Under the pieces are notes generated by a model. That model searched no databases. It was not told the DNA's origin and saw only the letters and a list, made by a program, of their open reading frames with translations. From a virus: a stretch of DNA of 32,454 nucleotides. The first letter of the stretch is position 1; each line of letters opens with the position of its first letter. The position numbers and the translations under genes are program-made. Shown here piece by piece: positions 5,252-30,615 of this stretch. The stretch covers positions 1 to 32,454 of the IMG/VR virus record IMGVR_UViG_3300010938_000105. One strand, given 5' to 3'.

Positions 5252-5484
5252 TTTAGGGTTTTAATTATCTCTTTTCGAAGGCCTTTTAGAATCTTTCGGA
5301 TGCGTCTATACGCCGTCATGTAAGGAATTCCGAGGAGTCGGCTGATAGCGCTGACCGAATGGGGCTGGTAGGGAAAAATTCCGAAATAGCGCTGTAAAAT
5401 TTCACGATTTTCGGAATCGAGAGTTTGCAGCAGCTCGTCCGCCCAATTCTCCCAAACGAACTCTTCCAAGGCTGCCATGTTCAT
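5248..5484 (-). CDS. Sigma-70 region-4-like HTH protein
   Basis: 78 aa. Residues ~22-70 follow sigma-70 region 4: ENREILQRYFGI, then HSVSAISRLLGI and a recognition helix MTAYRRIRKILKGLRKE. Only region 4 is present; no region 2 is visible, so it is not a full sigma factor. It could bind a -35 element, alter host RNA polymerase specificity for late genes, or act as a packaging-site DNA-binding protein. The start ATG overlaps the stop of the GroES-like gene (ATGA). It sits inside the packaging operon, between small and large terminase genes. Confidence 0.65.
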   Translation of the reverse strand: MNMAALEEFVWENWADELLQTLDSENREILQRYFGIFPYQPHSVSAISRLLGIPYMTAYRRIRKILKGLRKEIIKTLK

Positions 5485-5837
5485 TCCACTTTCGCTATTA
5501 CGTCCTTGTGATTGAGCACGTAATAAACTTCGTCGAGATTGATTTCCTGCGCCCCGAACCTTTTGAATATCACTTCGTCTCCAGGCTTTAATTCTTTTAT
5601 TTTGTTTCCTACGGCAACTACAATTCCTTTCAAAGGATAGACTTCACGGAGCAATTGCGACTGCCCGTTCATAAAACCGAGATAGATCGACCCTTTCTTC
5701 TGCTCGGGGAAAATGGGTTTCAGAATCAGGTTGTCGGACAAGGGCTTGAGCGGAAATTTCTTCGGAGTGGAAGCGAAAGCGAAACTCCTTTCGTCAAGAC
5801 AAGTCGGCTTGAAGTCGGAAGTTATCACAAAAGTCAC
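5481..5837 (-). CDS. GroES-like cochaperonin
   Basis: 118 aa. After a ~29-residue N-terminal extension, residues 30-118 follow the GroES (Cpn10) fold order: LKPLSDNLILKPI, then GSIYLG, the loop region, GIVVAVGNKIKELKPGDEVI and the closing EVYYVLNHKDVIAKVE. The region matching the GroES mobile loop is short and has no clear hydrophobic GIVL tripeptide. Host GroES caps GroEL. Phages such as T4 (gp31) carry their own to fold capsid proteins, and its place among packaging and head genes fits that. The start is GTG 5837 behind GGAGGAGCC and overlaps the small terminase stop (GTGA). Confidence 0.75.
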   Translation of the reverse strand: MTFVITSDFKPTCLDERSFAFASTPKKFPLKPLSDNLILKPIFPEQKKGSIYLGFMNGQSQLLREVYPLKGIVVAVGNKIKELKPGDEVIFKRFGAQEINLDEVYYVLNHKDVIAKVE

Positions 5838-10055: not shown

Positions 10056-10242
10056 TTTTTATCTCTCTCATCCTGAAATGCTTGCAAATTATGCAGTTCA
10101 TCACCGCCAGCCGAAGGTCTGCGAAATCCCTCGGGCCGTTGATGCGGCAAGGGGTCGGCACGCCCTCGAGCCGGATTACCGGGTCGCTGCATGTTTTTCT
10201 TTCGCACCAGATTTCAGCTTTGATTTTCTGATTCGCTCTCAT
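10027..10242 (-). CDS. Unknown Cys-containing small protein, 71 aa
   Basis: Cys residues are arranged as C-x4-C near the N-terminus (WCERKTC), a lone Cys in PTPC, CIIC near residue 50 and one near the end. This suggests metal binding. The phrase NGPRDFADLRLAV is reminiscent of conserved small early phage proteins, but I cannot assign a family. It overlaps both neighbours (29 bases on each side), as is common for compact phage operons. Confidence 0.5.
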   Translation of the reverse strand: MRANQKIKAEIWCERKTCSDPVIRLEGVPTPCRINGPRDFADLRLAVMNCIICKHFRMREIKNEKKDCKGH

Positions 10243-10546
10243 GCCAAACCCTTTCTCTTATACTCTTAAAGTGCACCAAGTCGTAAAACAGTCTCGAAGT
10301 TAACGCTCCGCTTAACCCGCTGTGTCCCTGGATGTTAAACATCCTAACCAATTCCATTGTCGCATGGTAGAGAAGTTTGCTATATTCGTTTGCATCTTTC
10401 CCGAAATAAAGGTGATGCGCTTCTTTCTCAGCAAAATCTACCAGATTGCTTCTCTTGTCCGCTGCCAGCCATAATCCGACCCTTATCATCAGGTATCCGA
10501 ACCACTCTTTGAAACCGCAATGCCTTATATATCTCGTGCGAAACAT
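10214..10546 (-). CDS. Conserved-type phage protein with QGHSG motif
   Basis: 110 aa, helical N-terminus, then LVRMFNIQGHSGLSGALTSR and a short tail. A closely similar FxxQGHSG-x-S stretch recurs in many small hypothetical proteins of tailed phages; no biochemical role is known to me. The start codon at 10546 lies just after the preceding gene's stop (10549). No membrane segment or Cys cluster is present. Confidence 0.6.
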   Translation of the reverse strand: MFRTRYIRHCGFKEWFGYLMIRVGLWLAADKRSNLVDFAEKEAHHLYFGKDANEYSKLLYHATMELVRMFNIQGHSGLSGALTSRLFYDLVHFKSIRERVWHESESENQS

Positions 10547-11911: not shown

Positions 11912-12633
11912 TTCCCCATGCCTCCTTTCAGCCATTCCCACGGCTTGACAGAATTTATTTTTCCAGCGTTTCGATAAATTTCTTTCTCTATCTCAGCCGC
12001 CGTCCACCCGTTCTTTAAGGCATTCTCCATCTGAAAGACATACTGCTTCAGTTGGTTAGGATAAGCCCGAAAGAATTCTTTGTTCTGACTTTCTAAAAGA
12101 TTAATTAAAAAAGAGAGAGAGGGAGAGGTACCAAACGAGCCGTTAGGCGAGTTTGCTTCTTTTTCTTTCTCTTTATATATTTCTCTTTCTTTTTCTTCTT
12201 CTTTTTCTTTTTCTTTTTCTTTATTCTTATTCTTATTCTTATTCTGGGAACTCCCTTTGGAGTTCTCTGGGAACTCCTTTGGAACTCCTTTGGAACTCCC
12301 AAGGAACTCCTTTGGAACTCCCTCTTCTTCATACCAATTGTGAAGTTCCCAAAAATTGTCTATATAATAACAAAAATCATCAGCTCGGACATGAGGGAAA
12401 ACTTCCATAATTCGCTTAATGTCTGCATTGAAACATTGCTCATCATGAGCATAGTTGATCTTGTTCTGAATAAACCTGAAATTTTTTGGTATTTTATTAC
12501 CAGTTATCCCGGCTAAAACAAGCATCTTAAGATAGAGAAGCTGCTGGCTTTCGTTTAGTTGGTAAAGAAATCGGTCATCTTCCTCAAAGAGGCGAAGGAA
12601 AAGTTTGATGAATACAACTTTCCGATATGGCAT
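11872..12633 (-). CDS. Replication initiator / replisome organizer
   Basis: 253 aa with GGGGGTGA 4 bases before ATG 12633. Residues 1-105 resemble the winged-helix N-terminus of phage replisome organizers (FIKLFLRLFEEDDRFLYQLN, then KIPKNFRFIQNKINY). Residues ~106-165 are a low-complexity linker: degenerate GVPKEF repeats, then alternating NK and EK runs. The C-terminal ~80 residues are a separate helical domain (GWTAAEIEKEIYRN, KPWEWLKGG) of the kind that contacts helicase or loader. The linker DNA carries regularly spaced repeats next to an AT-rich pyrimidine tract, much like lambda O, whose gene contains the origin. Confidence 0.65.
   Translation of the reverse strand: MPYRKVVFIKLFLRLFEEDDRFLYQLNESQQLLYLKMLVLAGITGNKIPKNFRFIQNKINYAHDEQCFNADIKRIMEVFPHVRADDFCYYIDNFWELHNWYEEEGVPKEFLGSSKGVPKEFPENSKGSSQNKNKNKNKEKEKEKEEEKEREIYKEKEKEANSPNGSFGTSPSLSFLINLLESQNKEFFRAYPNQLKQYVFQMENALKNGWTAAEIEKEIYRNAGKINSVKPWEWLKGGMGKWTRLALQHNSVS
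12150..12246. other. AT-rich polypyrimidine tract beside iterons (candidate unwinding region)
   Basis: The plus strand here is nearly pure T/C with TATATATT near its left end and three TATTCT units at the right end. It encodes the Lys/Glu/Asn run of the initiator linker. An easily melted tract next to iterons is typical of phage origins. This is inferred from composition only. Confidence 0.45.
12247..12321. repeat. Iteron-like repeats, candidate replication origin
   Basis: GGAACTCC occurs six times, at 12247, 12270, 12281, 12292, 12303 and 12314. The last five are spaced exactly 11 bp, about one helical turn. An inverted partial copy (GGAGTTC) is at 12259. The 11-bp period is not a multiple of three, so it cannot be explained by amino-acid repetition alone. 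Position in the initiator linker and the adjoining AT-rich tract match initiator-binding iterons of lambdoid origins. Confidence 0.6.
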
Positions 12634-13937: not shown

Positions 13938-14785
13938 TTATTTCCCTCCCTTCCCCGGTTGGGCTTCAATCCAGTCAAGCAGAATTGATAGTTCGTTGTT
14001 CGTCAATTCTTTCGTTGACGATTTCTTGAATCGCTTTTCCATCTCTTCTTTCAAGGCCAGTTCAGTCACTCCTTTGGCCATCTGCCGGGCGAATAAAAGC
14101 CGTCTCTGCGCTTCAGAAATAAATTTCCCATTGCCATTTTTGGGCTTTGCGGTCTTATATTCGACTATTCCTATTCTTGAGACATCAATTCCTGCTTGCT
14201 GAAGCTGTTCCCAGGATAAGTTTCTCAATCCCAAAAGCGAAGTTATCGCTCGCACTATCATGTTCGAATGAGCCGATTTGCGAATATTTGTTTCGTCTAT
14301 TTCGGAAAGAGGAAGATAATACACATTGCCGTTTGCATCTTTAGATAATAAACATTGCCGTTAGTATCTTTTCTTTGGGCGAAAAATTGGTCCCGACTTG
14401 AGCACGTTCCTTCGGTCTCTATCGTATGCCCATCCGGCGTGCTTGCTTTACAAGAATAGACATAGAAGTAATACTCCCCCTTGTCATCGTGTCCGACAAA
14501 CTTTTCCGCTTTCGTGTCGTAAATTCTTACCCGGAAAAGATTCGCTATCTTTTCCGCTCCAGAAGCGCAAAGGTATGGCCTTGACTTTTCCCCGAATCCT
14601 TGTTTCACCCAGTCAAAATGATTGGTCACTCTTAAGGCAGTCGTTATGATCTTCTTTACCGCCTCAACTCTCTTTTCCGCCTCATCCGCTAAAACGACAA
14701 TATCTTCTCGCTCAATCGGCGCCTCGTCTTTATCTTTCGGAGCAACAATGATTTCTTCCTCCGGCACGATAATTTGTTCATTCAT
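13938..14785 (-). pseudogene. Putative single-strand annealing protein, split by 29-bp duplication
   Basis: The first frame starts at ATG 14785 (GGAGG 9 bases upstream) and stops at 14297. The second frame continues to 13938. Between them lies a 29-bp imperfect tandem repeat. Removing one unit leaves 819 bases, exactly 273 codons (272 aa), with a smooth join NGNVYYLPLSEIDETNI. The restored protein has ASGAEKIANLFRV, GTCSSRDQFFAQ, AHSNMIVRAITSLLGL and a C-terminal ISEAQRRLLFARQMAKG module. This pattern is seen in phage recombination (SSAP-type) proteins. The neighbouring Cas4-like nuclease supports that role. No name is assigned because the family match is by memory only. Confidence 0.6.
14314..14371. 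repeat. 29-bp imperfect tandem duplication (frame-breaking)
   Basis: Units 14314-14342 and 14343-14371 differ at three positions. 29 is not a multiple of three, so the annealing-protein frame is lost between them. Confidence 0.9.
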
Positions 14786-14790
14786 TTTTA

Positions 14791-14990
14791 TCATCCTCCT
14801 TTTCTTAATTTCTCGAAACAATTCCAACAAACATATTCCGTCCATCCGGCCTTTTTATGGACAGAATTGACTTTCTTACCGCATACCGGGCAGGTATATC
14901 TTTTATCTCCCCCGCTTGCGTTTGCCTTATCATTTCGAGATAGTCCAGAAGCCCCTTCATCTTGCCGGAATAAAGTATCACTCTTTCCAA
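14791..14990 (-). pseudogene. Small zinc-ribbon protein with apparent 1-base deletion
   Basis: From TTG 14990 the frame reads MERVILYSGKMKGLLDYLEM and on through a helical stretch. In the next frame, ending at TGA 14791, is a clear zinc ribbon: YTCPVCGKKVNSVH, then YVCWNCFEKLRKGG. The two join smoothly if the G run at 14909-14913 (five C on the plus strand) had six bases, giving a 66-aa protein. Alternatively an ATT start close to the same ribosome site (GGAGGTGAAC) reads the ribbon frame directly. Such zinc ribbons often bind nucleic acid. Confidence 0.5.
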
Positions 14991-18387: not shown

Positions 18388-18623
18388 TCAAGCCTCCTGC
18401 TCTGCAAAAGTTCGTAGAGCCTGTCAAGTCGGGCCCGGATGTAAGACACGTCTTCCCGAAGGGCATCGACCCTTTCACGGGAAGCGTATCTCGATTCGCA
18501 CTCTGCCATGATTTTTTGCGGGAGCGAATACCAGCTGGCGACAATCGCCCCGATAATGCACATAAGCCAAATCAAGTCCTTGAGCGAAATCTCGATCCCT
18601 CCGTTGAACTTCACCATAGTCAT
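18384..18623 (-). CDS. Membrane-anchored coiled-coil lysis-region protein
   Basis: 79 aa. One membrane span near residues 13-34 (ISLKDLIWLMCIIGAIVASW), then a charged heptad-like helix (ASRERVDALREDVSYIRARL then DRLYELLQSRRLE). This layout is typical of small phage proteins next to endolysins (XhlA- or spanin-like). Its ATGA overlap with the C39 peptidase gene supports joint expression. It overlaps the stop of the ATP-grasp gene by four bases. Confidence 0.6.
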   Translation of the reverse strand: MTMVKFNGGIEISLKDLIWLMCIIGAIVASWYSLPQKIMAECESRYASRERVDALREDVSYIRARLDRLYELLQSRRLE

Positions 18624-19921
18624 TTCCCTTTCCTCGCTAATTCCAGAAATTTCCTATACCTTCTGACCCCGTCCTCGGCAATGTCGGTCCGATACCCGCC
18701 GCCCGGGACTTTCACCCTTTTCGCTTTCGCCATCAAGTCCTGTATCAGCCTCGGTATGTTCATCTTCCACGAAGTCACTTCCATGACTATCCCGTCCGTC
18801 CCCGCCATCTTGAAAGTGTCGTTTTCGTAAACCACGTCTTGGGGATAGAACCCTTCTTCCAAGGGAAACTCCAATTCTATTCCCTTGGTTTGTTCGTATA
18901 TCTTCTGATTGAACTCTTCGTTCTCGGCTTCGAAAGGATAAGGCGGAATCCAGATTCTCAAGGCGCCGCCGAACCCTTTCTTCCAGTCGATTTTCCTTAT
19001 CGTTCCTTTGGCTATTCCTTCGATGAACTCCCCCACTCCCATCGGAAGTATTTCGAACATGGCCAACGCCGCCGACCATCCGAACCGACAAGTCGGCTCA
19101 AGCACGTATGGCTTCCCGTCTTCGGACACGATGACGTTCAAGTCGAGCGGTCCCGTCCAGTCCCCCAACCCCGATATAAGCTTCTTTATCGTATTCCGAT
19201 AGATAAAGTCGTTTGTCTCTCCGCCCCAAACGATGCTCGAAGAACAACCGGTATTTGGCCCAAGGTCGCCGTTCAGAAGTTTTTTCGTCTCTAACGTATG
19301 ATTGACTGGCAGTATCGGCTCTCCCTTGCTCAAGAACAGTTCAGTCGATATTTCCAGCCCCAAGAACAGTTCAGTCGATATTTCCAGCCCCTCGATAAAT
19401 TCCTGAATTATCAGCCCCTTTTTCGTGATATTGTGCTCTTTCATATATGCGAGTTCGTTGGCCAACTGCTCCGCCCCTTCCACGATGGCGGTAGTCATGC
19501 ACGACTGGTTGCCGTTCGGCTTTATCACCCACTTGCCTTCGGCCCCTTTCGCCCAGTCAATCGCCTCGTCCACATGGTCGAAACTGAACGTCTCCGGGAT
19601 TTCGATTCCGTGTCTCACGAACGTTTCCATCGAGAATTCCCTGTCGAGCTCGAGATTGTCCATGAATTCCCCGGCGCCGAATACGACATAGCCCGCTTCC
19701 TTCAACTCGTCGGCCAGCTTCCCCTGCCCAACCATGTCGAATACGCATATGACTCCTTCCTCAAGCCCTTCTTCGAAATGCTCGACCTTGTCGACAATGC
19801 CGTCATACTGAACGGCGTAGCGCTTGTCCCAATACCAGATTCTGACCTCGTGCCCTTCCTGCATGAGCCGCCAGGCAAGCCCGTTCCCATCCCCGCTTTT
19901 CGAAAACACCAGGAACTTCAT
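18620..19921 (-). CDS. PurD-like ATP-grasp ligase
   Basis: 433 aa, about the length of bacterial PurD (glycinamide ribonucleotide synthetase). It has the N-terminal nucleotide-binding start (MKFLVFSKSGDGNGLAWRL), ATP-grasp A/B elements (GKWVIKPNGNQSCMTT, then GLIIQEFIEGLEIS) and the catalytic Mg-binding end (TGPLDLNVIVSEDGKPYVLE, PTCRFGWS). The C-terminal domain ends KVPGGGYRTDIAEDGVRRY, as PurD does (AYxxA region). The classic reaction joins glycine to phosphoribosylamine; the phage enzyme's substrate is unknown. Residues ~187-206 hold a perfect 10-aa tandem repeat (GLEISTELFL twice) inside the ATP-grasp fold, which may disturb it. Its location between lysis and virion genes is unexpected. 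Confidence 0.75.
   Translation of the reverse strand: MKFLVFSKSGDGNGLAWRLMQEGHEVRIWYWDKRYAVQYDGIVDKVEHFEEGLEEGVICVFDMVGQGKLADELKEAGYVVFGAGEFMDNLELDREFSMETFVRHGIEIPETFSFDHVDEAIDWAKGAEGKWVIKPNGNQSCMTTAIVEGAEQLANELAYMKEHNITKKGLIIQEFIEGLEISTELFLGLEISTELFLSKGEPILPVNHTLETKKLLNGDLGPNTGCSSSIVWGGETNDFIYRNTIKKLISGLGDWTGPLDLNVIVSEDGKPYVLEPTCRFGWSAALAMFEILPMGVGEFIEGIAKGTIRKIDWKKGFGGALRIWIPPYPFEAENEEFNQKIYEQTKGIELEFPLEEGFYPQDVVYENDTFKMAGTDGIVMEVTSWKMNIPRLIQDLMAKAKRVKVPGGGYRTDIAEDGVRRYRKFLELARKGK
19331..19390. repeat. Perfect 30-bp in-frame tandem repeat in ATP-grasp gene
   Basis: Units 19331-19360 and 19361-19390 are identical and encode GLEISTELFL twice. The frame is kept. Confidence 0.95.
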
Positions 19922-20080
19922 TCTTTGCCCTCCAACGATTCGCAGTATTCAATGTCCCAATACCAGATCTTGACCTCGTGCCCTTCCTGCATAAGCCGCC
20001 AAACAAGTCCGTTCCCATCCCCGCCTTTCGAAAATACCAGGAACTTCATCTCTTGCCCTCCAACGATTCGCAGTATTCAA
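19826..20080. repeat. 128-bp imperfect tandem duplication at the ATP-grasp gene start
   Basis: 19826-19952 recurs at 19954-20080 with about ten differences. Each copy contains the end of the upstream gene and the first codons of the ATP-grasp gene. 128 is not a multiple of three, but the duplication spans a gene boundary, so both genes stay intact. Confidence 0.9.
19918..20049 (-). pseudogene. Duplicated N-terminal fragment of the ATP-grasp protein
   Basis: A 43-aa frame starting at ATG 20049: MKFLVFSKGGDGNGLVWRLM, a diverged copy of the first ~33 residues of the ATP-grasp protein, then WDIEYCESLEGKE copied from the end of the upstream gene. Its TGA overlaps the ATP-grasp ATG. It is a by-product of the 128-bp duplication; it may be translated and relay ribosomes to the real start. 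Confidence 0.6.
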
Positions 20081-20414: not shown

Positions 20415-20711
20415 ATGCTCGCTAAAGCATTAAAAACCATATTTGCCATTTCCCTTTTGTGTTTCTCTTCCTATTTAGCGGCACTATTTATAATTGAGAT
20501 TCTTCTTCTATCCTTCAAAATCCCTTATTATGGAGAAATCTTATCCGACTTATGTGCCAATACTTCTCCCCCCAATATGCTGTCTTTCATGTTTGTCTGG
20601 TCTATAATCGGAATAATCATGCTCGTCTCTATTTATTCCCTTACTTTCGTTCTTATGGTTACATTCTGGTTTCTACTTAAAAAACTCTTCAACTTTGATT
20701 TTCTTTCCTAA
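20415..20711 (+). CDS. Plus-strand membrane protein (possible superinfection-immunity type)
   Basis: 98 aa from ATG 20415 (MLAKALKTIFAISLLCFSSY) with two hydrophobic regions: residues ~8-32, and ~52-90 (MLSFMFVWSIIGIIMLVSIY then SLTFVLMVTFWFLLK). A polar loop with GEILSDLCANTSPPN lies between. The frame stays open upstream to 20136, but the promoter at 20377-20406 and AT-rich shift point to 20415. It is a single plus-strand gene with its own strong promoter amid minus-strand genes, the usual layout of lysogenic-conversion or exclusion genes. Function is inferred from layout only. It overlaps the convergent virion gene end by four bases. Confidence 0.65.
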   Translation: MLAKALKTIFAISLLCFSSYLAALFIIEILLLSFKIPYYGEILSDLCANTSPPNMLSFMFVWSIIGIIMLVSIYSLTFVLMVTFWFLLKKLFNFDFLS

Positions 20712-23455
20712 TCGTTCGATTCTTCCTCTTCTCCTTCTTCTTCCTCTTCTTCTATCTCGAGGTCTCGTTTCCGTCTGACTTCTTCCCTTAAAAGCAGTCC
20801 TCTTTCCCTTGCTTTCTTTATCACTTCCTCTGACGGCCTTGCCTTGACTAATCCTCTCAAAAGTTCTATCCGATTCTGAATTGCTTTTTTCAGGTCGTCC
20901 GTCTTGCTTTTTATTTCCGCTTGGGACAAATTCGGGTCATTAGAAATAATCCTTATTCTTGCTTTCAATTGCCTAATCTCATTCTGCAGTTCCTCAATTT
21001 TCTGAATATATTCGTTCACTCCCCCAGAATAAATGGAAATAGCAATGTTTCTCATTATCGCTTGTGGAAGCGTCCTTTGTCTTAAAATGGGATAACCATA
21101 CATTTCTCCTCTTGCCGAACGATAGAGACGTTCAATGTCAGTAACAAGGGTGGGAAGAAGTGCCTTAGCGACATACCACATCACTTTTATGTTCTTTTCC
21201 TGAGTAGTATCTTTCTTGGGATCGTAAATCGGTTTCCCAAAATATGGATCATAATTGGCTAATGTCGCTCCAAATACTCCGGGAATGCCGCTGGGAAGTC
21301 CCAATTGTGCGTATTGTTTGGGCTCGAGGAACAACCACTTCCAGTCGGACCCAAAAGGCATCGTGTATCCAAGATTGAGATACTGCGGGTCGCCGTTCTT
21401 ATCCAGTCCCAGGAAAACAACCCAGTCGCTCTTTTCGAGATATTTAGGCTTCATAGCCTCTACTTGCTCCTTGGTCAGGTTGTGCTTGTAGGCAGCAAGG
21501 GAAGATATTGCAGCCGCAAGCAGAAGCCACTTGATCATCTTCCATGGTCTGGCCAAAGTAGTCTCAACCACTCTTGGCGCCTGCAACCAATAGAACGAAA
21601 GGAATGGTGCGAACCAACCCCCGACAGCTCCTTTTCGAAGCGCTTCGGCAAAATCGCCTACAAACCGATAGTCGAGCTCGATTTTATTTCCCCAATAGAC
21701 CGCCTCCGCCGGAGTTGCCCCGTGTGCCCTCGCCCACTTATACGCATACAATCGTCCGATATGGTCAATGCTTCCATACCATCTGGCCGCTTCTTTTCCT
21801 TTTCTGCTGACTTCAAGAATCTTGTCCCAAAGCTGTATCGGGTTCTCACTCTCTTGAATGAATTTGTCTATGAAAGACGGCTCGAGTTCTATTGAATAGT
21901 AGTCCGACCCGAATTGCCCGTTGTTCCTCGCCTCGATATACTCCCCGGTTTTTGTTATGTATTCTTTTAACGCTTCTTTGTATAACTTGAAGTTGGAAGT
22001 TGTTTTGCCGGTTATGGCGTGTCTGAAAGGAATAATGCTCCAAACCGGCATGCCGTGCATATCGGTCTGAATATAGTTTCCTGAAACGGCGTTTCTTATG
22101 GAAGTTCCGACTCCGAACGGGACTTTCATAATCTTATACCAGCTCAAAAGTTCCCCCAACGTGGTTTCTAACGGTCCTTTCTTGCTTTGAAAATATACTT
22201 TCAAATCCTCGAAAACCGCCGGGTGAACGTATCCTTCGTTTAGCGGGCCAAGTCGAACATCTCTTGTCTGATGCGGTGGCAAAAGACGGGAAACGGGGAT
22301 AAAATCGTTGTCTCTGGCATATTGCGTATAGGTCTTGGAGAAAAGCTGTGGGCTGTGATAAATGGCGTCAAGATAAGTCATGGTCGCCCATTGGTTGGCA
22401 AGGTCTCTTGCCGTTTTGTCCATCATGGCGTCGCCCAAATAAACCCAGCCATGGGCCACTTTCTCTTCCCTGCCGAGTTTTTTCAGTTCTTCAATGCTTT
22501 TCGGAATGAATTCTTCGGCCGTTTCTGCCTCGGTAAATTTTAATTGAAGCTGCCTGTAAAACTCGGGACTTCTTGCGGCTGGTTCCTTCCCCATCAGTTT
22601 CAATTGTTCTGCGGTAGGTGGGGCAAGATAGTCCATAAGAGCGTCGATCTCTTCTGGTTCCCAGCCACGATTAAGCAAGGCAACTTTTCCCCAATCCTCG
22701 TCGGTCATCTTTCTCTGGAACATCGACTGCGATATTCTTTCCAAACTCCTTGGCGTGCTCGGAGTGATCCTTCTTTCCCCTTTTATGTCCTTAAGGTAAA
22801 ATGTGCGGGCGTATCGCCCCACGTTGCGTTCCACAATTTCGTCTGTCAACTTTACTTCTTCTGGCCGAATTGCCCTTTCTTCCGCCCATTCCTTGAACAG
22901 ATTGCTGATTTCCTTTCCAAACCTCGCCATCTCCACGTCCCATGCCTTGACTATCGGAGCGAACCTTTCCTCAACGGGAATGTATTTGTTTATCATCAAT
23001 CCAACTTCCGCTTTAGTTTGTGGAGATAATTTCTTAATGGGGTTGACATATGTTTCTTTCAATCTTTGATAAGTGGCGTCGGCAATGCGATATTTCTCTC
23101 TCAAAAGATTGAAAGCCGCATATGGTCTCTGCCCAAGAGGAGTCAGACGACGAATACCCGGGATTTTGGCAGAAAACTTGTAGATGCCGCTTAAGGCATC
23201 CATAACCATCTTGCTGTATGGATTCTGATGTTCGAGAGTTGGCGGACGCCAGTCGGCCGCTTCGGGTTGCGGCCTCATCAGGGGCGGCGCCTTCTCTGCC
23301 GCTTCGAGAACTTCTCTTTGATACGCTTCAAAACCCGGACCCGGTCCGGTCAATTCCGGCAGTCTTATTTCCTTTGGCGGCCCGCTTGTGGGAAGTATGC
23401 CAAGCGGTGCACCCGCTCTTTCTATCTCCCTTGCTCTTTCTGCGCCAGCTTCCAA
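20708..23455 (-). CDS. Very large virion/ejection-type protein, C-terminal part
   Basis: 915 codons as an isolated frame, starting at a TTG at 23455 without ribosome site. The frame is open slightly further upstream and reads naturally across (KGIKGPPDILEAGAERARE). It is helical, with GTSIRNAVSGNYIQTDMHGM, a hydrophobic stretch MIKWLLLAAAISSLAAY and GLDKNGDPQYLNLGYTMPFG. These resemble the large polyvalent-protein-associated domain 38 type seen in phage ejection or polyvalent proteins (recognised by pattern, not search). A coiled-coil tail and a very acidic end (EIEEEEEEGEEEESND) close it. It was probably once continuous with the next two frames: the whole region minus 17 bases plus one gives 1622 codons. 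Confidence 0.65.
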   Translation of the reverse strand: MEAGAERAREIERAGAPLGILPTSGPPKEIRLPELTGPGPGFEAYQREVLEAAEKAPPLMRPQPEAADWRPPTLEHQNPYSKMVMDALSGIYKFSAKIPGIRRLTPLGQRPYAAFNLLREKYRIADATYQRLKETYVNPIKKLSPQTKAEVGLMINKYIPVEERFAPIVKAWDVEMARFGKEISNLFKEWAEERAIRPEEVKLTDEIVERNVGRYARTFYLKDIKGERRITPSTPRSLERISQSMFQRKMTDEDWGKVALLNRGWEPEEIDALMDYLAPPTAEQLKLMGKEPAARSPEFYRQLQLKFTEAETAEEFIPKSIEELKKLGREEKVAHGWVYLGDAMMDKTARDLANQWATMTYLDAIYHSPQLFSKTYTQYARDNDFIPVSRLLPPHQTRDVRLGPLNEGYVHPAVFEDLKVYFQSKKGPLETTLGELLSWYKIMKVPFGVGTSIRNAVSGNYIQTDMHGMPVWSIIPFRHAITGKTTSNFKLYKEALKEYITKTGEYIEARNNGQFGSDYYSIELEPSFIDKFIQESENPIQLWDKILEVSRKGKEAARWYGSIDHIGRLYAYKWARAHGATPAEAVYWGNKIELDYRFVGDFAEALRKGAVGGWFAPFLSFYWLQAPRVVETTLARPWKMIKWLLLAAAISSLAAYKHNLTKEQVEAMKPKYLEKSDWVVFLGLDKNGDPQYLNLGYTMPFGSDWKWLFLEPKQYAQLGLPSGIPGVFGATLANYDPYFGKPIYDPKKDTTQEKNIKVMWYVAKALLPTLVTDIERLYRSARGEMYGYPILRQRTLPQAIMRNIAISIYSGGVNEYIQKIEELQNEIRQLKARIRIISNDPNLSQAEIKSKTDDLKKAIQNRIELLRGLVKARPSEEVIKKARERGLLLREEVRRKRDLEIEEEEEEGEEEESND

Positions 23456-24378
23456 AATGTCTGGAGGCCCTTTAATCCCTTTGGTAGCAAAATATCTGGC
23501 TTAAGTTCAATAGGGTCAAATAATTTTGGTTCTTGAGATTTAATAATCTCTAAAACCTCTTTCCCCCACATATCTGGACCAAGCCATTCTCTTTGCCCTT
23601 TTAATGTATCTCTCCCTCCCAAAAAAGTCATTTCTCCCCGATATTTATTGTCAAAAGAAATACTAAATTCGTCGGTTAAGTTTTCTATTTCTTCTTTTGT
23701 AAAATTGGTTTTTCCTTTTTTCAATTTATCTATTGCCGACAATAATGCCTCTTTATTCCTTGCGAAAATCGGTTCAAATTTTTCTCTATACGACTTCGAT
23801 GGTTTGAGTTTAGGAGAAACTGCTTCAGATGGAACAACCGCTAAAGGTTCAAGTTCGGGAGGGATTTCAGGCGGGGCAGTTTCGGCTTTAGGGACAGGCG
23901 GGGCAACTTCAGCCTTTTCGGCTTTGGGAATGCGTTCGGATACAGCCTCGGGTTTCGCAACCGATACTGGCGGACTGACTGGCGGAACTTCTTCAGGATA
24001 GAGAGCCTTTCTCCTTGTTTCATATCTTTCTAACGCCTCCTTTGCCGTAATTATATCAGGATCATCATCGGGAATACCAAGTTCTTTCTGACTTCTCAAA
24101 ACATCCTGATAGAACCTTACCTCATCAGGGGTTAGGACTGGGAACTTCTTATCGAGATCCCTTAATTCCTCAAGCCGATTGACATGCTGTCCAGTTTCGA
24201 TAAGAAAATCAATGTCAGGCGGATATCTTTCTCCTGAATAGTGAACGAATCCTTTTTCCAACCTGTCTCTGGCTACCGCATACTTTTTCCATTTCGCAGG
24301 CCTGAAACCCGGAAATTCCTTCGGCAACGTGCCTTGAGCAAGCTCCCCATCAATTCTTTTGACTTCTTCTTCTACCAT
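23422..24378 (-). CDS. Large virion protein, middle segment
   Basis: 318 aa from ATG 24378, but the frame is open upstream to the 17-bp duplication and reads like protein there (KAESNIAKSKRLIEGILSDL). The first ~130 residues are helical and charged. Then comes a Pro/Ala/Val/Lys linker (residues ~130-195) and a folded part around GGRDTLKGQREWLGPDMWGK. It ends in LLPKGLKGLQTFW, at which point a -1 shift gives the next segment. The A-AAG-GGA heptamer at 23476-23482 could allow programmed slippage; a lost A would give the same picture. No ribosome site precedes the ATG, supporting the idea that this is not an independent gene. Confidence 0.6.
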   Translation of the reverse strand: MVEEEVKRIDGELAQGTLPKEFPGFRPAKWKKYAVARDRLEKGFVHYSGERYPPDIDFLIETGQHVNRLEELRDLDKKFPVLTPDEVRFYQDVLRSQKELGIPDDDPDIITAKEALERYETRRKALYPEEVPPVSPPVSVAKPEAVSERIPKAEKAEVAPPVPKAETAPPEIPPELEPLAVVPSEAVSPKLKPSKSYREKFEPIFARNKEALLSAIDKLKKGKTNFTKEEIENLTDEFSISFDNKYRGEMTFLGGRDTLKGQREWLGPDMWGKEVLEIIKSQEPKLFDPIELKPDILLPKGLKGLQTFWKLAQKEQGR

Positions 24379-24419
24379 TTGCCTTGCCTTAGGAGAAAGG
24401 TCAGACAGAATACCTTCTA

Positions 24420-25589
24420 TCAGTCTCTTACTCTTAGCGATATTTGACTCCGCTTTCTCGCCGACTCTGCTTTCTCACCAAATCCTATGCCTTTTATCCC
24501 TTTCAGCAATACTTCGGGCGGTGGAACGGGTTTTGTCGGAACGACGGGTTTAGTCGGTTTTGCCACTTTAGCTGCAGGAGCAACAACTTCAGGAACAACC
24601 TCGGCAGGTTTCGCAGGCGCAGCTGCAGAAGCAGGCAATGCGGGAACTGCGATTTCTTTCGCTGCTGGTAAAGAGTATATCGGCGGCTCGAATATAACTT
24701 CTTCCCACACGACCGGCGGGGTTATTCTTCTGACAATTTCGTGATACGCTGCCGCTATTTCCGCAAATTTTCTCGTCGCTTCTTCTTTCGGAAGATCAGA
24801 AACGTCAGGATGATACCTTTTCGCCAATTCCCTGAATCTTGCGTTTACTTCATCAAGCGAAGCATCTTTAGGAACTCCTAATGTCTTATATGGGGCGGTA
24901 ATAGCTTTGTATATCTCTCTGAAGGAAAGAGCACTCTTGGCAAAATTGGCAAGGTCGATAATATCCCCTACAGTTGCCCCTACTATCCCAATTCTGAACA
25001 GAAGATCATCAAATCTTTTTCTCGCTTCCGCTGGCCCACCTGCAGGCGGAGTAATCGCAGACACTTCTTCAGCAGGAGCTCTTGCAATCATAGGAGCGAC
25101 TTCTCTTTCCCGCTTTCTCATCCATTCTCCGATATCCCTTTTCAATTTCGGGGAAGTCAGTTCGGGAGCCAATTCGGGCGGTTCTTTCGGAACGATTTTC
25201 TGAAGATATTCGGTAGCGGCTTCTACCCCTTTGCCTAACGGCCTCATCACAGGAGCAGTGATAGGTTCTATCTTACGAGCGAGTTCCTCAAGACTGGCAG
25301 AGGGAATTCTGGCCGTCGGTTCTATCTTCGGCAACGCTTCCCTTGGAGAGAGCACCTCACCTTCTACTTCAAAAAATTTCCTAATTGGAGCGAAGATATC
25401 GGCCTTGGGTTCTTCTTTGGGGGTAGGATACAATCCCTTTTCCTTAAGCACGTTATCTACGGTGTCGACGTCTACCCCCTGCCCCCTCAACCAATCCCTT
25501 TTCGAAAGATAGTATTCGGGAGTTTTCCGCCCTTCTTTCAGGTCGGTTAAAACTTGATAAGTCTTTTCATCTACATCAACGACTACCAT
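24420..25589 (-). CDS. Large virion protein, N-terminal segment with J-domain
   Basis: 389 aa. ATG 25589 overlaps the previous stop. Residues ~230-285 are a DnaJ-type J-domain: YKTLGVPKDASLDEVNARFR, ELAKRYHPDVSD with the HPD triad at ~260-262, and KFAEIAAAYHEIV. J-domains stimulate the ATPase of Hsp70 (DnaK). A hydrophobic-glycine stretch (GIVGATVGDIIDLANFAKSA) precedes it and a long Ala/Pro/Val/Lys linker follows. The frame breaks at a 17-bp duplication (24446-24476) just after LLKGIKGIGFGEKAES; without one unit it continues into the next segment. A J-domain in a virion protein could recruit host DnaK for assembly or after injection. Confidence 0.75.
   Translation of the reverse strand: MVVVDVDEKTYQVLTDLKEGRKTPEYYLSKRDWLRGQGVDVDTVDNVLKEKGLYPTPKEEPKADIFAPIRKFFEVEGEVLSPREALPKIEPTARIPSASLEELARKIEPITAPVMRPLGKGVEAATEYLQKIVPKEPPELAPELTSPKLKRDIGEWMRKREREVAPMIARAPAEEVSAITPPAGGPAEARKRFDDLLFRIGIVGATVGDIIDLANFAKSALSFREIYKAITAPYKTLGVPKDASLDEVNARFRELAKRYHPDVSDLPKEEATRKFAEIAAAYHEIVRRITPPVVWEEVIFEPPIYSLPAAKEIAVPALPASAAAPAKPAEVVPEVVAPAAKVAKPTKPVVPTKPVPPPEVLLKGIKGIGFGEKAESARKRSQISLRVRD
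24446..24476. repeat. 17-bp tandem duplication (frame-breaking)
   Basis: GACTC(C/T)GCTTTCTC at 24446-24459 and 24463-24476, period 17. It separates the J-domain segment from the middle segment of the large virion protein. Confidence 0.8.
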
Positions 25590-26494
25590 TCGAATTTTTT
25601 CTTTTCTTCGACGCTTTCGCCTTGCAGTCGTTTTAATCTTTCGATTTGACTTTCGATATTGTCAATGGACGCTCGAAGTTGTTTTCTATCATTTTCCGTA
25701 AGACCCATCGATGCGACAGGATCAGTCAGCTGCTTTATAATTTCGGCTCTTTTGTCTTCAAGTTGAGCGATAGCTTTCGGTATGTCTGTGGGTTTTAGCG
25801 TAGCTCCTTTCCCTGAAGGCTTTTCCCTTTTCGGGACTTCCACCTTTACCGCCGGCGTCCTTCCTTCCACCTTTACCGCCGGTGTTCTCCCCGCCGACAG
25901 AGCAGCGATATACGCATCTTTCGGCAATAATCCCGACTCAGAAAGAGCTCTTATTAAATCCTGAAGCGTTGGTTGTCTCCAATAGCCCACGTCCCCAACT
26001 GGGAATCTGATTACTCCCTCAGGGATTGTTTCCGCAACTGGAGCTTTGAGCGCAGGCATAGGCACGGATTTGGGTGCAGGAATGGACAATTCAGCAGGCA
26101 ATGGCAAAGTCGCACTTCTCAATCCCACTTTCCCTGCTTGCACTGCTTTAGCGGTTTCCACTTCTGGAGTGGTAACACGTCTCGCTAATCCAGCAGTAGG
26201 CCCGAGATATTGCTCGGCAGTTTGAGTCCGATACGTTCTCGGTTCATAAGGCACGTATCCCGCCTTAAGCATGGTTTCCAGAAGTTCTCTCCTTCCCTTT
26301 TCCTCTTCCTCCCTTCTCTTCGCCTGCTTCTCCATCCATTCGTTGTACCCTTCTGCTACGCCTGGGATGGTCGCTCCTGCATAAGCCAATCCGACGGCTG
26401 GCAAGATAGTCCCCCAATCCGCCTTCTGTATCGCTTCCCAGGTTCCTCCCAAAGCGCTTCCTATCGTTTTCGCTATGTCTTCAATCGTTGGCAT
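25583..26494 (-). CDS. Virion-associated protein, unknown
   Basis: 303 aa with a strong ribosome site (GGAGGGATGAGAC) before ATG 26494. N-terminus has a Gly/Ala-rich, mildly hydrophobic stretch (DWGTILPAVGLAYAGATIPG) followed by a charged coiled coil (NEWMEKQAKRREEEEKGRRE). The middle is Pro/Ala/Val-rich, with an in-frame 9-aa tandem repeat (GRTPAVKVE). The C-terminus is a second coiled coil (KAIAQLEDKRAEIIKQL, SIDNIESQIERLKRLQ). It lies in the cluster of internal or ejection-type virion proteins. No family was recognised. Confidence 0.6.
   Translation of the reverse strand: MPTIEDIAKTIGSALGGTWEAIQKADWGTILPAVGLAYAGATIPGVAEGYNEWMEKQAKRREEEEKGRRELLETMLKAGYVPYEPRTYRTQTAEQYLGPTAGLARRVTTPEVETAKAVQAGKVGLRSATLPLPAELSIPAPKSVPMPALKAPVAETIPEGVIRFPVGDVGYWRQPTLQDLIRALSESGLLPKDAYIAALSAGRTPAVKVEGRTPAVKVEVPKREKPSGKGATLKPTDIPKAIAQLEDKRAEIIKQLTDPVASMGLTENDRKQLRASIDNIESQIERLKRLQGESVEEKKKFEW
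25839..25892. repeat. In-frame 27-bp imperfect tandem repeat
   Basis: TTCCACCTTTACCGCCGG occurs twice with period 27 in the virion-associated gene, encoding GRTPAVKVE and GRTPAVKVE. Frame preserved. Confidence 0.8.
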
Positions 26495-26530: not shown

Positions 26531-28016
26531 CTAAGATCTCCTTCTTTGCGCCGCCGCTTGCGCTTCCGCTATCGCCCGGTTTATTTCCTCGGCTGTCGGG
26601 CCTGTCCCCCCAGTTGCTCGTGCTACCTGATATACTTTTTCCCTTTCCTCGGGAGTTTCATACCCAACCCCCTTCATCATATTCCTTTCGATTTCCTGCG
26701 TTTTCGACAAAAGTTCGTTCCAATAGCCTTTTTCCGCATCCGACAACGCCCATTCGTCCCTTATGGGGACTTTTTTCGAAAAGTTCGTTCCAATAACCTT
26801 TTTCCGCATCCGACAACGCCCATTCGTCCCTTATGGGGACTTTTTTCGGAGTGTTGATCACAACTTCCAATTTCTTAAACAAGTCGTCCAATTGTAAAGC
26901 GCTCAATTTGTTCAGTTCCGGGAATGCTTTTAACATGGCGTTCTGCATGGCAGTTCCGCCAAAAAGTCCTTTATTCCCTTCCGCAAGTTGATAAGCGTAT
27001 CTTATGTATTCGGGATTTTTGCTCGCAAGTTCGTTGTAAGCAGCCAGCGACCTATTCACTGCGTCGGCATGTTCTTGCATCGCCCTATAAGACCCCATGC
27101 GTGCCAACTCTTTCCTTTCCTCGCTTCGGTCCGGCAACAGCCATTTCCTAAACCCTTCGTAAAGCTGGCTTCCAATGTCATAAGCCAGTTTCCACGGCGC
27201 AATCTGGGAAGCGATTTGCCCAACTGTAGAAACCACTTGCCCGACCGGGGTCAGAACTCCCTTCATCGCTTCTCCGACCGCCGATATTGGCTGGACTGGC
27301 GAGCGCTCGAGCACTCCCCCGACCGCTTTGCCGATTTCAACCATTTGGCCCGGCGTGGGTTCGAATTTCACCCCACCAAGACCGACTTTGACTGCTGGTG
27401 CGGTTTTCTCCGCCACTTCGCTCCACTCCCCCAACGCCGGAGTCGGAAGCCTGACTTGCCCAAGCCCGAATCGAGCCCCTTCGGGAAGCCCAATCCCAAG
27501 TTTGGACCAGTCAATCTTCGATAAGTCAATTCCGGAAGGAAGTCCGACTTTTGACAAATCCACGCTTGGCAAATCGACTTTCAGTTTTGCCCAGTCAATC
27601 CCACCACCCGGCAACTGATACTTGCTCCAGTCGATACTGGGCAAAGTCGGAGTAGGAAGTTCAACTTTCGGCAAAGACGGCAAAGTCGGAGCAGGCAACC
27701 GAGCACCTTCGAGTCCGATTTTCCCCGAAAGTTCTGGGAAGTCGATTTTGATTTTGTTCCAGTCTATCTCCCCGCTTGGCAGTTTGTATTTGCCCCAATC
27801 GATTTTGCCCAAATCAATATCTGGGCCTTTCAGGCTTATGTCTGGCCCCTTGAGGTCCAAGCGAATGTCGGGCCATCTTAAGGAAGGCCACTTTACTTTT
27901 GGTAAAGATATCTTTCTGAATGCATCTTCGGGCCTTCCCCCAAAAAGATAGGCAACATTCGCCTCCTCGATTGACGGGTATTCTTCCGAAGTAAGATACT
28001 CTGTTAACGCTGGCAT
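26531..28016 (-). pseudogene. Large virion protein with IDW-x-K repeats, frame broken by 70-bp duplication
   Basis: ATG 28016 starts directly after the preceding gene. Residues ~35-190 contain degenerate repeats of the form IDW-x-K-x-x-LP-x-G (IDWGKYKLPSGEIDWNKIKI, IDWSKYQLPGGGIDWAKLKV, IDLSKIDWSKLGIGLPEG), probably an extended repeat fold. A Gly/Val/Ala region and a helical C-terminus (RMGSYRAMQEHADAVNRSLA) follow. At 26.85 kb a 70-bp tandem duplication shifts the frame. The second half (WNELLSKTQEIERNMMKGVG to AAAQRRRS) ends at 26531. Removing one unit leaves 1416 bases, exactly 472 codons. It probably encodes an internal or ejection protein. Confidence 0.6.
26706..26849. repeat. 70-bp near-identical tandem duplication (frame-breaking)
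   Basis: AAGTTCGTTCCAATA begins at 26711 and again at 26781. The units share CCGCATCCGACAACGCCC and TTATGGGGACTTTTTTCG with only one or two differences. 70 is one over a multiple of three. Confidence 0.95.
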
Positions 28017-28553: not shown

Positions 28554-30389
28554 TCAGGAACTCTCCAGGATGTCGTAGCATATGACCCAATAGACAATCC
28601 CAAAATCATCTTGCCCCATTGCCTGTTCCGTCAAATACCATGAGAAGAATCTGCATTCGTCGTTTACCGGGAAGCGGTGCACGTCTACGATATAAGGCCT
28701 GTCAAATCTATCCACAACAGTATATTTCAAGAAATAAACTTGATCTTTAGATGCGTCGATTTTCCCAAAATCCTTACGATAGTTGAAAACAACGTTCGTT
28801 TGCACATCACCCCCCGTCGGATGAAAGCCGAATTCCACCCAATAAATCTTTAGTTTCTTGTTCGGATACCCGCTGTAGAATGTAGCCGACTCTAAATATC
28901 CCGTAGTCGTGTCGTCCCCATAAGTATTAAACTTCTTCAATTGGTTGCTGGGACTCATGTCGGCAAACACGAATTCCGGTAAGGCCTCACCTCCATAAAC
29001 GAGACACCCGTGCCCGGCGTTGTGATAATGATCCATTCCTATCCACTGCTTTTTCAGATAGTCGTAATGCAAAGCCCAGCCGGGGCCATTTGTATCGGGG
29101 AGAAATAAGGAATAAGTGTGCCGAAAATCGTCCACTATCGCCCAAGGATATTTGTTATCATAACTACCAAGTGAAAAGTAGTTGAACGACCGAGCGGAAC
29201 TGATATTCGTCTCGAAAAATTCCTTCAACGACCCGGAAATGTCTACGTCATCGTTCCCGTTAGTGAAGCGAAGCGATCCGCCCGATAGGTAAATCAGCCC
29301 GTTCTCCACCTGCTGAATCGTCCTGTGGGATATGCACCCGTGGTTGAAAGTCCTGACCAGCACTACCGGCTCGTCTAAGTCGCCTGTCCAGCGATAAACA
29401 TAGTAAGAAAAGTCTTTGAATACAAATAAATAATCGTCCAAGCTCCCCAAGCCAGTTATTATTTCTTTACCTGCGGCATCCCCAACATCAAGGTATCCAC
29501 TACCCATTCCCGACCAATTCTCAGGATCACCTGTTACTGACCAATAAAGACGAGACCAAAAGCGGTCTGAGGTTAAATCACAAGCCGTCCAAAGTTTCCC
29601 TTTGAATACCTTCAAAAAAAGAGGCATTTGCCCGAGTTGCGGCGCTTTTTGCGCACTGCTACTACTTCCAGTAGTCCCCCCATATGATTCCATCAAGGTC
29701 AAAGAAGTGTTAGACTGAATTGTTTTCACTTCATAATAGTCGTCAGACGAATCTTTTCTTATCCAAGCCCCTTGCCATAATTCGCCGGTGAAATTCGTCC
29801 CAGAACCGGTCACCGTTGCGCTTCCATTAGTAAAGGTCAAAGTCCCCGTTAATGTGGTTGGCGTCCCTCCTTTATCCGAACAATGAGGCAAAGCCGATTC
29901 CCAAGATGTATCTCCATGCCACCATTTATGGAGTCCGTTATCAACTAATGTTACATAACATCTGTCTCCCAATTGGGTAAAATCAGCATGATACCCCATT
30001 GCATCACCACCAAGCGTTTTCCAGGTATTGTTTTGCACATCCAAAGCATACATAGTTGTAGGAACATAACACATTAGATAGTATATGTTTAGGCTAAGAT
30101 AAAACGGGAAAATCCCCCTTGTTCTCCCAACAGCGGGCATAGTCGGTCCATAGTTGGAAATCGAAGGGGCTTTAGATATGCATCCCACAATAGGAGTGTT
30201 ATATTGGACGCTTGACAAGTCCACCGTCCCCCTGAAGTTTACGCAGGTCTGCAAAATGTCCGCATTCGCACTATTTATCGGCAAAATCAGTTGGTTTGTC
30301 TTGTCAATCCCCCCAAAAGTATTAACAGTTAAATACTGTTTTGTCTTGTCAATCCCGCCGAAAGTATTAACAGTCAGATACTGTGGCAT
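28554..30389 (-). CDS. Tail tubular protein B-like protein (tail nozzle)
   Basis: 611 aa. ATG 30389 (MPQYLTVNTFGGIDKT) has GGAGGGAG 3-10 bases upstream; a longer frame to 30449 is disfavoured. It is beta-rich, with VFKGKLWTACDLTSDRFWSR, LYWSVTGDPENWSG, VFKDFSYYVYRWTGD and NGLIYLSGGSLRFTNGNDDV. The pattern 'switch on / source location / spreadsheet-like' beta blades, with W-rich SVTGDPENW, is typical of T7 gp12-type tubular proteins and related podovirus tail proteins. An in-frame 45-bp tandem repeat duplicates the N-terminal 15 residues. It probably forms the tail nozzle. Confidence 0.7.
   Translation of the reverse strand: MPQYLTVNTFGGIDKTKQYLTVNTFGGIDKTNQLILPINSANADILQTCVNFRGTVDLSSVQYNTPIVGCISKAPSISNYGPTMPAVGRTRGIFPFYLSLNIYYLMCYVPTTMYALDVQNNTWKTLGGDAMGYHADFTQLGDRCYVTLVDNGLHKWWHGDTSWESALPHCSDKGGTPTTLTGTLTFTNGSATVTGSGTNFTGELWQGAWIRKDSSDDYYEVKTIQSNTSLTLMESYGGTTGSSSSAQKAPQLGQMPLFLKVFKGKLWTACDLTSDRFWSRLYWSVTGDPENWSGMGSGYLDVGDAAGKEIITGLGSLDDYLFVFKDFSYYVYRWTGDLDEPVVLVRTFNHGCISHRTIQQVENGLIYLSGGSLRFTNGNDDVDISGSLKEFFETNISSARSFNYFSLGSYDNKYPWAIVDDFRHTYSLFLPDTNGPGWALHYDYLKKQWIGMDHYHNAGHGCLVYGGEALPEFVFADMSPSNQLKKFNTYGDDTTTGYLESATFYSGYPNKKLKIYWVEFGFHPTGGDVQTNVVFNYRKDFGKIDASKDQVYFLKYTVVDRFDRPYIVDVHRFPVNDECRFFSWYLTEQAMGQDDFGIVYWVICYDILESS
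30295..30384. repeat. In-frame 45-bp imperfect tandem repeat at tail protein N-terminus
   Basis: Units 30295-30339 and 30340-30384 each encode QYLTVNTFGGIDKT plus one residue, with a few silent differences. Silent-only changes indicate the duplication is not very recent or has been shaped by protein-level constraint. Confidence 0.9.
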
Positions 30390-30399
30390 TTTCTCCCTC

Positions 30400-30615
30400 C
30401 TATGCCAAAAGTATTCCGAAACCCAGTCCCAAAATCCCCGCCAGCACATCTTTCCAGTCGAAGAAATTGCCCTTCTGCATACTATCCCAAATTTCCTTGC
30501 CGAAAATAAAAGCCAAAGACAACGCTATGCCGAAGCCGAGATTGATTCTCGACCCGACTATGACTATGGCTGCGGAAACGATACTATGGGACACCAAATC
30601 TCGTCTAAATTGCAT
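30400..30615 (-). CDS. Small membrane protein of the tail region
   Basis: 71 aa. Two hydrophobic segments (SIVSAAIVIVGSRINLGFGI and WKDVLAGILGLGFGILLA) separated by FIFGKEIWDSMQKGNFFDW. The GKE-[IL]-[WY]-D ... DWKD-x-LA-x-x-x-G pattern is common in small phage and bacterial membrane or lipoprotein-like proteins (YfiM type). ATG 30615 has AGGAGG 12 bases upstream, a long spacing. Possible role in lysis or membrane passage; unproven. Confidence 0.55.
   Translation of the reverse strand: MQFRRDLVSHSIVSAAIVIVGSRINLGFGIALSLAFIFGKEIWDSMQKGNFFDWKDVLAGILGLGFGILLA

What the first reader, a model, noticed from the sequence alone, without database searches (positions are those of the whole stretch)
20708..25589. 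Ancestral 1621-aa polyvalent-type protein with a J-domain
Three frames join into one protein once a 17-bp duplicate is removed and one base added. It would combine a J-domain, Pro/Ala linkers, a folded middle and an LPD38-like C-terminus with an acidic tail. A J-domain in an injected or internal virion protein would give a phage direct access to host DnaK.
Basis: partly seen in the sequence, partly recalled or inferred. Interest (0 to 1): 0.6.

Follow-up and report, generated by a model that had tools for sequence, protein, structure and literature searches.

The report
J-domain polyvalent ejection protein, frame-broken contig
A short-tailed phage carries, where its relatives encode one giant protein thought to be injected into the host with the DNA, a gene for a version with a docking module (J-domain) for the host's DnaK chaperone; the gene looks split in three here, most likely because two strain variants were joined in this sequence.

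Summary
Largely right, with corrections. On the minus strand, 25589-20708 is one continuous coding stretch whose frame switches twice with no gap. Piece A has a genuine J-domain: Pfam DnaJ E 2.5e-13, HPD intact. Piece C misses Pfam's LPD38 model, but against a 126-row LPD38-family profile it scores 41.5 (E 4e-4); 148 unrelated phage proteins and 180 shuffles stay below 30. Phages with the same gene order encode an LPD38 protein here; 85 of 86 homologues are single ORFs of 928-2547 aa, several with swappable cargo upstream of the core (methyltransferase, ART, zeta toxin, lysozyme). None of 80 viral LPD38 records has a J-domain in this gene, and the founding polyvalent-protein paper names none. 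The 17-bp repeat is real but imperfect; its differences are all synonymous. The contig holds three more frame-breaking tandem repeats; 11 of 15 differences lie at third codon positions, so the copies derive from two intact variants: probably an assembly or recombination chimera, not old decay. Best reading: an intact protein of about 1,620 aa in the real phage, ejected into the host, where the J-domain recruits DnaK. Injection and DnaK activity are untested. New variant of a known kind.

The parts
24420..25589 (-). Piece A (389 aa): N-terminal region, J-domain, Pro/Ala-rich linker; its ATG overlaps the stop of the upstream 303-aa gene
   Evidence: ORF; DnaJ PF00226 E 2.5e-13 over the cut-off; coding profile
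24741..24893 (-). J-domain (residues 233-283 of A)
   Evidence: PF00226 positions 2-51/63; PDB J-domain matches, best E 3.5e-7
24804..24812 (-). HPD motif codons (residues 260-262 of A), the signature required for DnaK stimulation in known J-proteins
   Evidence: read from sequence; aligned to HPD of solved J-domains
24446..24479 (-). Imperfect 17-bp tandem repeat at the A/B frame switch; both copies encode GEKAES in their own frames
   Evidence: coding frame switches at about 24466
23422..24465 (-). Piece B: 318-aa ORF from ATG 24378 plus coding in the same frame upstream to the repeat
   Evidence: no family matched
23422..23494 (-). B/C frame overlap (second switch, -1). Contains zero-frame heptamers A_AAG_GGA (23482-23476) and A_AAG_GGC (23473-23467)
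   Evidence: modest downstream RNA structure z -2.0
20708..23455 (-). Piece C (915 aa): LPD38-type core, helical C-terminus, acidic tail; no good ribosome site before its TTG
21227..21847 (-). LPD38-like core (residues 537-743 of C)
   Evidence: hhalign against a 126-row family profile: score 41.5, E 4.4e-4; 148 unrelated proteins max 27.5, shuffles max 29.2
20711..20773 (-). Acidic C-terminal tail (Glu-rich)
   Evidence: translation
25583..26494 (-). 303-aa gene just upstream; by position an internal virion protein like the 265-aa gene of relative G001
   Evidence: synteny only; no sequence match
26549..28016 (-). 452-aa gene just upstream, itself frame-broken by a 70-bp tandem repeat at 26709-26848
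   Evidence: weak tape-measure match
28554..30449 (-). 631-aa tail protein at the head of the same gene run
   Evidence: PHROG tail matches; phmmer E 2.4e-5 to the 946-aa tail protein of G001

Best explanation
In the real phage population this is one gene for a polyvalent ejection protein of about 1,620 aa: an N-terminal region with a J-domain, Pro/Ala linkers, a helical middle, and a distant LPD38-type C-terminal core. Shown: coding continuity, the J-domain, distant LPD38 homology, gene position, and single-ORF homologues with other cargo upstream of the core. Inferred: it is packaged in the head and ejected with the DNA; once in the cytoplasm its J-domain docks on host DnaK, most likely to help this protein, which has to leave through a narrow tail, enter and refold, or to place DnaK on other targets at the moment of entry. 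The break into three frames is most likely a join of two strain variants in the assembled contig.
For: J-domain over the Pfam cut-off with HPD intact. Coding continuous with two in-place frame switches. Relative G001 (TerL 68%) has a single 1266-aa LPD38 ORF after the tail protein and two mid-size genes, a similar order to here. 85 of 86 homologues unbroken. Homologues carry MTase, His-phosphatase plus zeta toxin, ART-PolyVal, lysozyme or SLT cargo upstream of the core. C matches the LPD38-family profile far above controls. Cultured relatives annotate an internal virion protein B two genes before it. [quoted passage not shown] T7 gp16 is thought to leave the virion partly unfolded and refold in the host (PMC8954989). 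Frame-breaking repeats: 11 of 15 differences at third codon positions, p 0.0018, and no stops elsewhere in about 1,600 codons.
Against: No homologue with the J-domain in this gene; C has no close relative in any collection scanned. Piece B matches nothing. The second frame switch has no repeat. No Pfam-level LPD38 hit in C. Nothing tests packaging, ejection or DnaK binding. A single-sequence AlphaFold run on C gave pLDDT 38, so there is no structural check of C.
Confidence: 0.55

Rival explanations
1. Same single protein, but the J-domain acts in the infected cell before lysis: it brings DnaK in cis to fold or hold the giant protein, or to assist head assembly, and has no role at entry.
For: Phage J-domain proteins are usually read as recruiters of host Hsp70 for folding and assembly (PMC7824862). 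The phage also encodes a GroES-like protein (5481-5837), suggesting chaperone demand in assembly.
Against: Relatives of similar size do without a J-domain; the cargo region of this family elsewhere holds effectors.
Confidence: 0.25
2. Same protein, but the J-domain is a counter-defence or reprogramming module: on entry it captures DnaK or competes with host DnaJ, blunting chaperone-dependent phage sensing or altering the heat-shock response.
For: The RB43 J-protein binds DnaK and stabilises sigma32 (PMC3486835, title and abstract). DnaJ is reported as required for sensing by bNACHT25 (cited in PMC12619734). Other cargo in this family is likely host-directed (ART, zeta toxin).
Against: No partner or target evidence in this window; a few ejected copies would be a small dose against abundant DnaJ (inference).
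Confidence: 0.12
3. Three separate genes: a stand-alone J-domain protein (A), a small protein (B) and an LPD38-like protein (C).
For: B has an ATG with a weak AAGG upstream; J-domains occur in several PHROG families of short phage proteins.
Against: Coding extends upstream of B's ATG; C's TTG lacks a convincing ribosome site; A runs into its stop just after a repeat; homologues are single ORFs.
Confidence: 0.1
4. The B-to-C switch is a programmed -1 ribosomal frameshift, so the second break is biological.
For: Two zero-frame X_XXY_YYZ heptamers (A_AAG_GGA, A_AAG_GGC) lie in the overlap, where about 0.17 are expected from the window's rate; downstream structure z -2.0.
Against: The same heptamer sits in unbroken genes of this window; the two heptamers arise from one short KG repeat; homologues read straight through as single ORFs; the contig has other, clearly non-programmed breaks.
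Confidence: 0.08
5. A genuine pseudogene in a decaying phage or provirus.
For: Several genes in the contig are frame-broken.
Against: No stops in about 1,600 codons apart from the switches; copy differences are at third codon positions, as in genes under selection.
Confidence: 0.05

Closest known systems
LPD38 phage-type polyvalent proteins (Pfam PF18857; Iyer et al. 2017), e.g. Pelagibacter phages HTVC034P gp44 and Lederberg gp8, Vibrio phage 1.211.A gp14, Bacillus phage Palmer gp20
   Same: Position after tail and internal-virion genes; giant, mainly helical protein; LPD38-type core near the C-terminus; variable cargo upstream of the core
   Different: C scores below Pfam detection; cargo is a J-domain, seen in this gene in none of 80 viral relatives; reading frame broken in this contig
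Bacteriophage RB43 J-domain protein (Perrody et al. 2012, PMC3486835)
   Same: Phage-encoded J-domain; the RB43 protein is shown to work with host DnaK
   Different: RB43's is a stand-alone protein; here the J-domain is inside a large virion-type protein
T7 gp16 ejection protein
   Same: Size class, place in the virion gene run, cargo domain upstream of a large helical part (PMC8954989)
   Different: No sequence relation shown; T7's cargo is a transglycosylase; the modelled LPD38 core has no PDB match
Stand-alone J-domain frames in two LPD38 phages (G030, G032)
   Same: A J-domain in a phage that also has an LPD38 protein
   Different: 212- and 143-residue open frames about 9 kb from the LPD38 gene, not fused

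Membership tests
J-domain proteins (PF00226) | Match to the DnaJ profile above the curated cut-off | tested here: met
   50.3 bits against a cut-off of 27.8
J-domain proteins (PF00226) | HPD motif between helices II and III | tested here: met
   residues 260-262 of A
J-domain proteins (PF00226) | Complete domain including the last helix | tested here: inconclusive
   profile positions 2-51 of 63 matched
J-domain proteins (PF00226) | Stimulates Hsp70 ATPase | not testable with these tools
   needs biochemistry
LPD38 polyvalent proteins (PF18857) | Match to Pfam LPD38 above cut-off | tested here: not met
   no hit; control relative G001 hits at E 9e-34
LPD38 polyvalent proteins (PF18857) | Distant homology to the family | tested here: met
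   score 41.5 against maximum 29.2 among 148 unrelated proteins and 180 shuffles
LPD38 polyvalent proteins (PF18857) | Several unrelated activities in one polypeptide | tested here: inconclusive
   J-domain plus LPD38-like core if the frames are one gene; broken here, single in 85 of 86 homologues
LPD38 polyvalent proteins (PF18857) | Encoded among phage structural genes | tested here: met
   similar order to G001, L012 and cultured relatives
Phage ejection (internal virion) proteins | Packaged and ejected into the host | not testable with these tools
   needs virion proteomics and injection assays

The most novel reading that the evidence does not exclude
The phage uses host DnaK as an import motor: the J-domain of the ejected protein arrives in the cytoplasm, recruits DnaK to the emerging chain, and DnaK pulls in and refolds the ejection protein, a phage counterpart of the Hsp70 import motor at the mitochondrial inner membrane.
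Probability: 0.15. Interest if true: 0.8.

Novelty: new variant of a known kind. Interest (0 to 1): 0.5.

Why it matters
How giant ejection proteins leave a narrow tail and refold in the host is poorly understood. A J-domain built into one would make the role of host chaperones at entry directly testable, by a single HPD change, and would add a chaperone-recruiting module to the known cargo of polyvalent proteins. The repeat analysis also gives a simple test for strain-chimera breaks that make genes look dead in metagenome contigs.

Tried and rejected
Close relatives of C or A: no hits for C in phages, viral contigs or genome contigs, none for A in viral contigs, and only the J-domain of A matched in phages. 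TerL scan of genome contigs for relatives or a host: none. Structure of C from one sequence: pLDDT 38, discarded. Structure of the LPD38 core of G001 (pLDDT 75): no PDB match with E below 0.001; the BFVD matches below 0.001 that carry a name are mostly polyvalent or uncharacterised phage proteins, so it gives no fold-based function. Programmed frameshift kept as a weak rival. Direct BLASTP of C to one homologue was not significant, and the first five-row profile gave only E 0.0098. Papers on J-domains in ejection proteins: none seen among those returned.

Full report
What is there. The window is an IMG/VR virus record with a portal-type protein, TerL, TerS, tail genes and methyltransferases. 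On the minus strand, A (24420-25589), B (23422-24378) and C (20708-23455) follow one another. In a codon-usage log-likelihood profile trained on other genes of the window, one frame scores best almost throughout from 25569 to 20745, and the best frame changes at about 24466 and at 23495-23422. Coding in the B frame begins at the repeat, upstream of B's ATG. C's TTG has no convincing ribosome site. So the three pieces read as one gene of about 1,620 codons with two frame switches, both -1 in sense.

J-domain. A matches Pfam DnaJ at 50.3 bits (cut-off 27.8) over residues 233-283 and J-domains of solved structures (best E 3.5e-7), with HPD at residues 260-262. The last J-domain helix is not covered by the profile match.

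C-terminal piece. Pfam's LPD38 model does not hit C. The relative G001 (TerL 68% identical) has, after a 946-aa tail protein and genes of 393 and 265 aa, a single 1266-aa ORF with LPD38 at E 1.7e-30. From its homologues I fetched 80 viral loci and built a 126-row profile. C aligns to it over residues 537-743 with score 41.5, E 4.4e-4, ending at ANYDPYFGKPI against the family's N-x-SFF-x-x-RPI. Controls: 148 unrelated phage proteins reach at most 27.5, shuffles of C at most 28.3 (60) and 29.2 (120), other window proteins at most 28.4. C is therefore a distant member of the family, below Pfam's reach.

The family. 85 of 86 homologues are single ORFs of 928-2547 aa (a few cut by the end of a locus); the exception is cultured Pelagibacter phage HTVC010P, whose copy is annotated in several short ORFs that line up along the family profile. 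In several members the region upstream of the core carries cargo: methyltransferase, histidine phosphatase with zeta toxin, ART-PolyVal, lysozyme, transglycosylase. Cultured relatives place the gene two genes after one annotated as internal virion protein B-like and before the tail fibre. Among the 80 viral records a J-domain occurs in two, both as separate small frames about 9 kb away. The main text of Iyer et al. 2017 does not mention DnaJ and lists LPD38 as phage-type only.

Why the gene looks broken. The A/B switch sits on an imperfect 17-bp repeat. The contig has at least three more frame-breaking tandem repeats (29, 70 and 128 bp). Across these four, 11 of 15 differences between copies fall at third codon positions of each copy's own frame (p 0.0018). 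An old duplication in a dead gene would not be expected to show this, and about 1,600 codons of A-B-C show no other stop. In 88 other sequences put through one repeat filter, two-copy tandem repeats have lengths that are nearly always multiples of three; the window has four that are not, besides the 17-bp one. The simplest cause is that sequence from two strain variants was joined in the contig, by the assembler or by recombination. The B/C switch has no repeat; it may be a small indel or, less likely, a programmed frameshift.

How it may work. Shown: a J-domain upstream of an LPD38-type core, where relatives carry other cargo. Inferred from family and position: packaging, ejection, cytoplasmic arrival. 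T7 gp16, a protein of similar size and place, is thought to leave partly unfolded and refold in the host (PMC8954989). A J-domain there would bring DnaK to the incoming protein. Alternatives are chaperoning during assembly, or interference with DnaJ/DnaK-dependent defence or stress control. None is tested.

Verdict.

Noticed in passing
window 26709-26848, 14314-14371, 19825-20080: Frame-breaking tandem repeats (70, 29, 128 bp) whose copies differ mostly at third codon positions: signs that the contig joins two strain variants; they break a 452-aa gene, a gene at 14037-14814, and duplicate the start of the purD-like gene.
   Followed up: yes
window 30292-30381, 2220-2273, 25837-25890, 19331-19390: In-frame tandem duplications (45, 27, 27, 30 bp) in tail, portal, 303-aa and purD-like genes.
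   Followed up: partly
window 10214-10546 (-): Matches Tad3 (PF25185, E 1.6e-11), an inhibitor of type I Thoeris defence.
   Followed up: no
window 5481-5837 (-): GroES-like co-chaperonin (PF00166, E 1e-10) next to TerS: a second chaperone-related gene in the same phage.
   Followed up: no
window 18620-19921 (-): 433-aa ATP-grasp protein related to PurD (GARS_A E 9e-13; well below the NCBIfam purD cut-off), possibly a divergent ligase.
   Followed up: no
L008 4443-8087: The LPD38 gene of Pelagibacter phage HTVC010P (KC465898) is split into several overlapping ORFs that align in order to the family profile; sequencing errors or real breaks.
   Followed up: partly
L045 4108-9804: LPD38 protein carrying a histidine phosphatase domain and a zeta-toxin kinase in its cargo region.
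   Followed up: no
window 12157-12321: TTCTTT repeats followed by an 11-bp GGAACTCCTTT repeat array.
   Followed up: no
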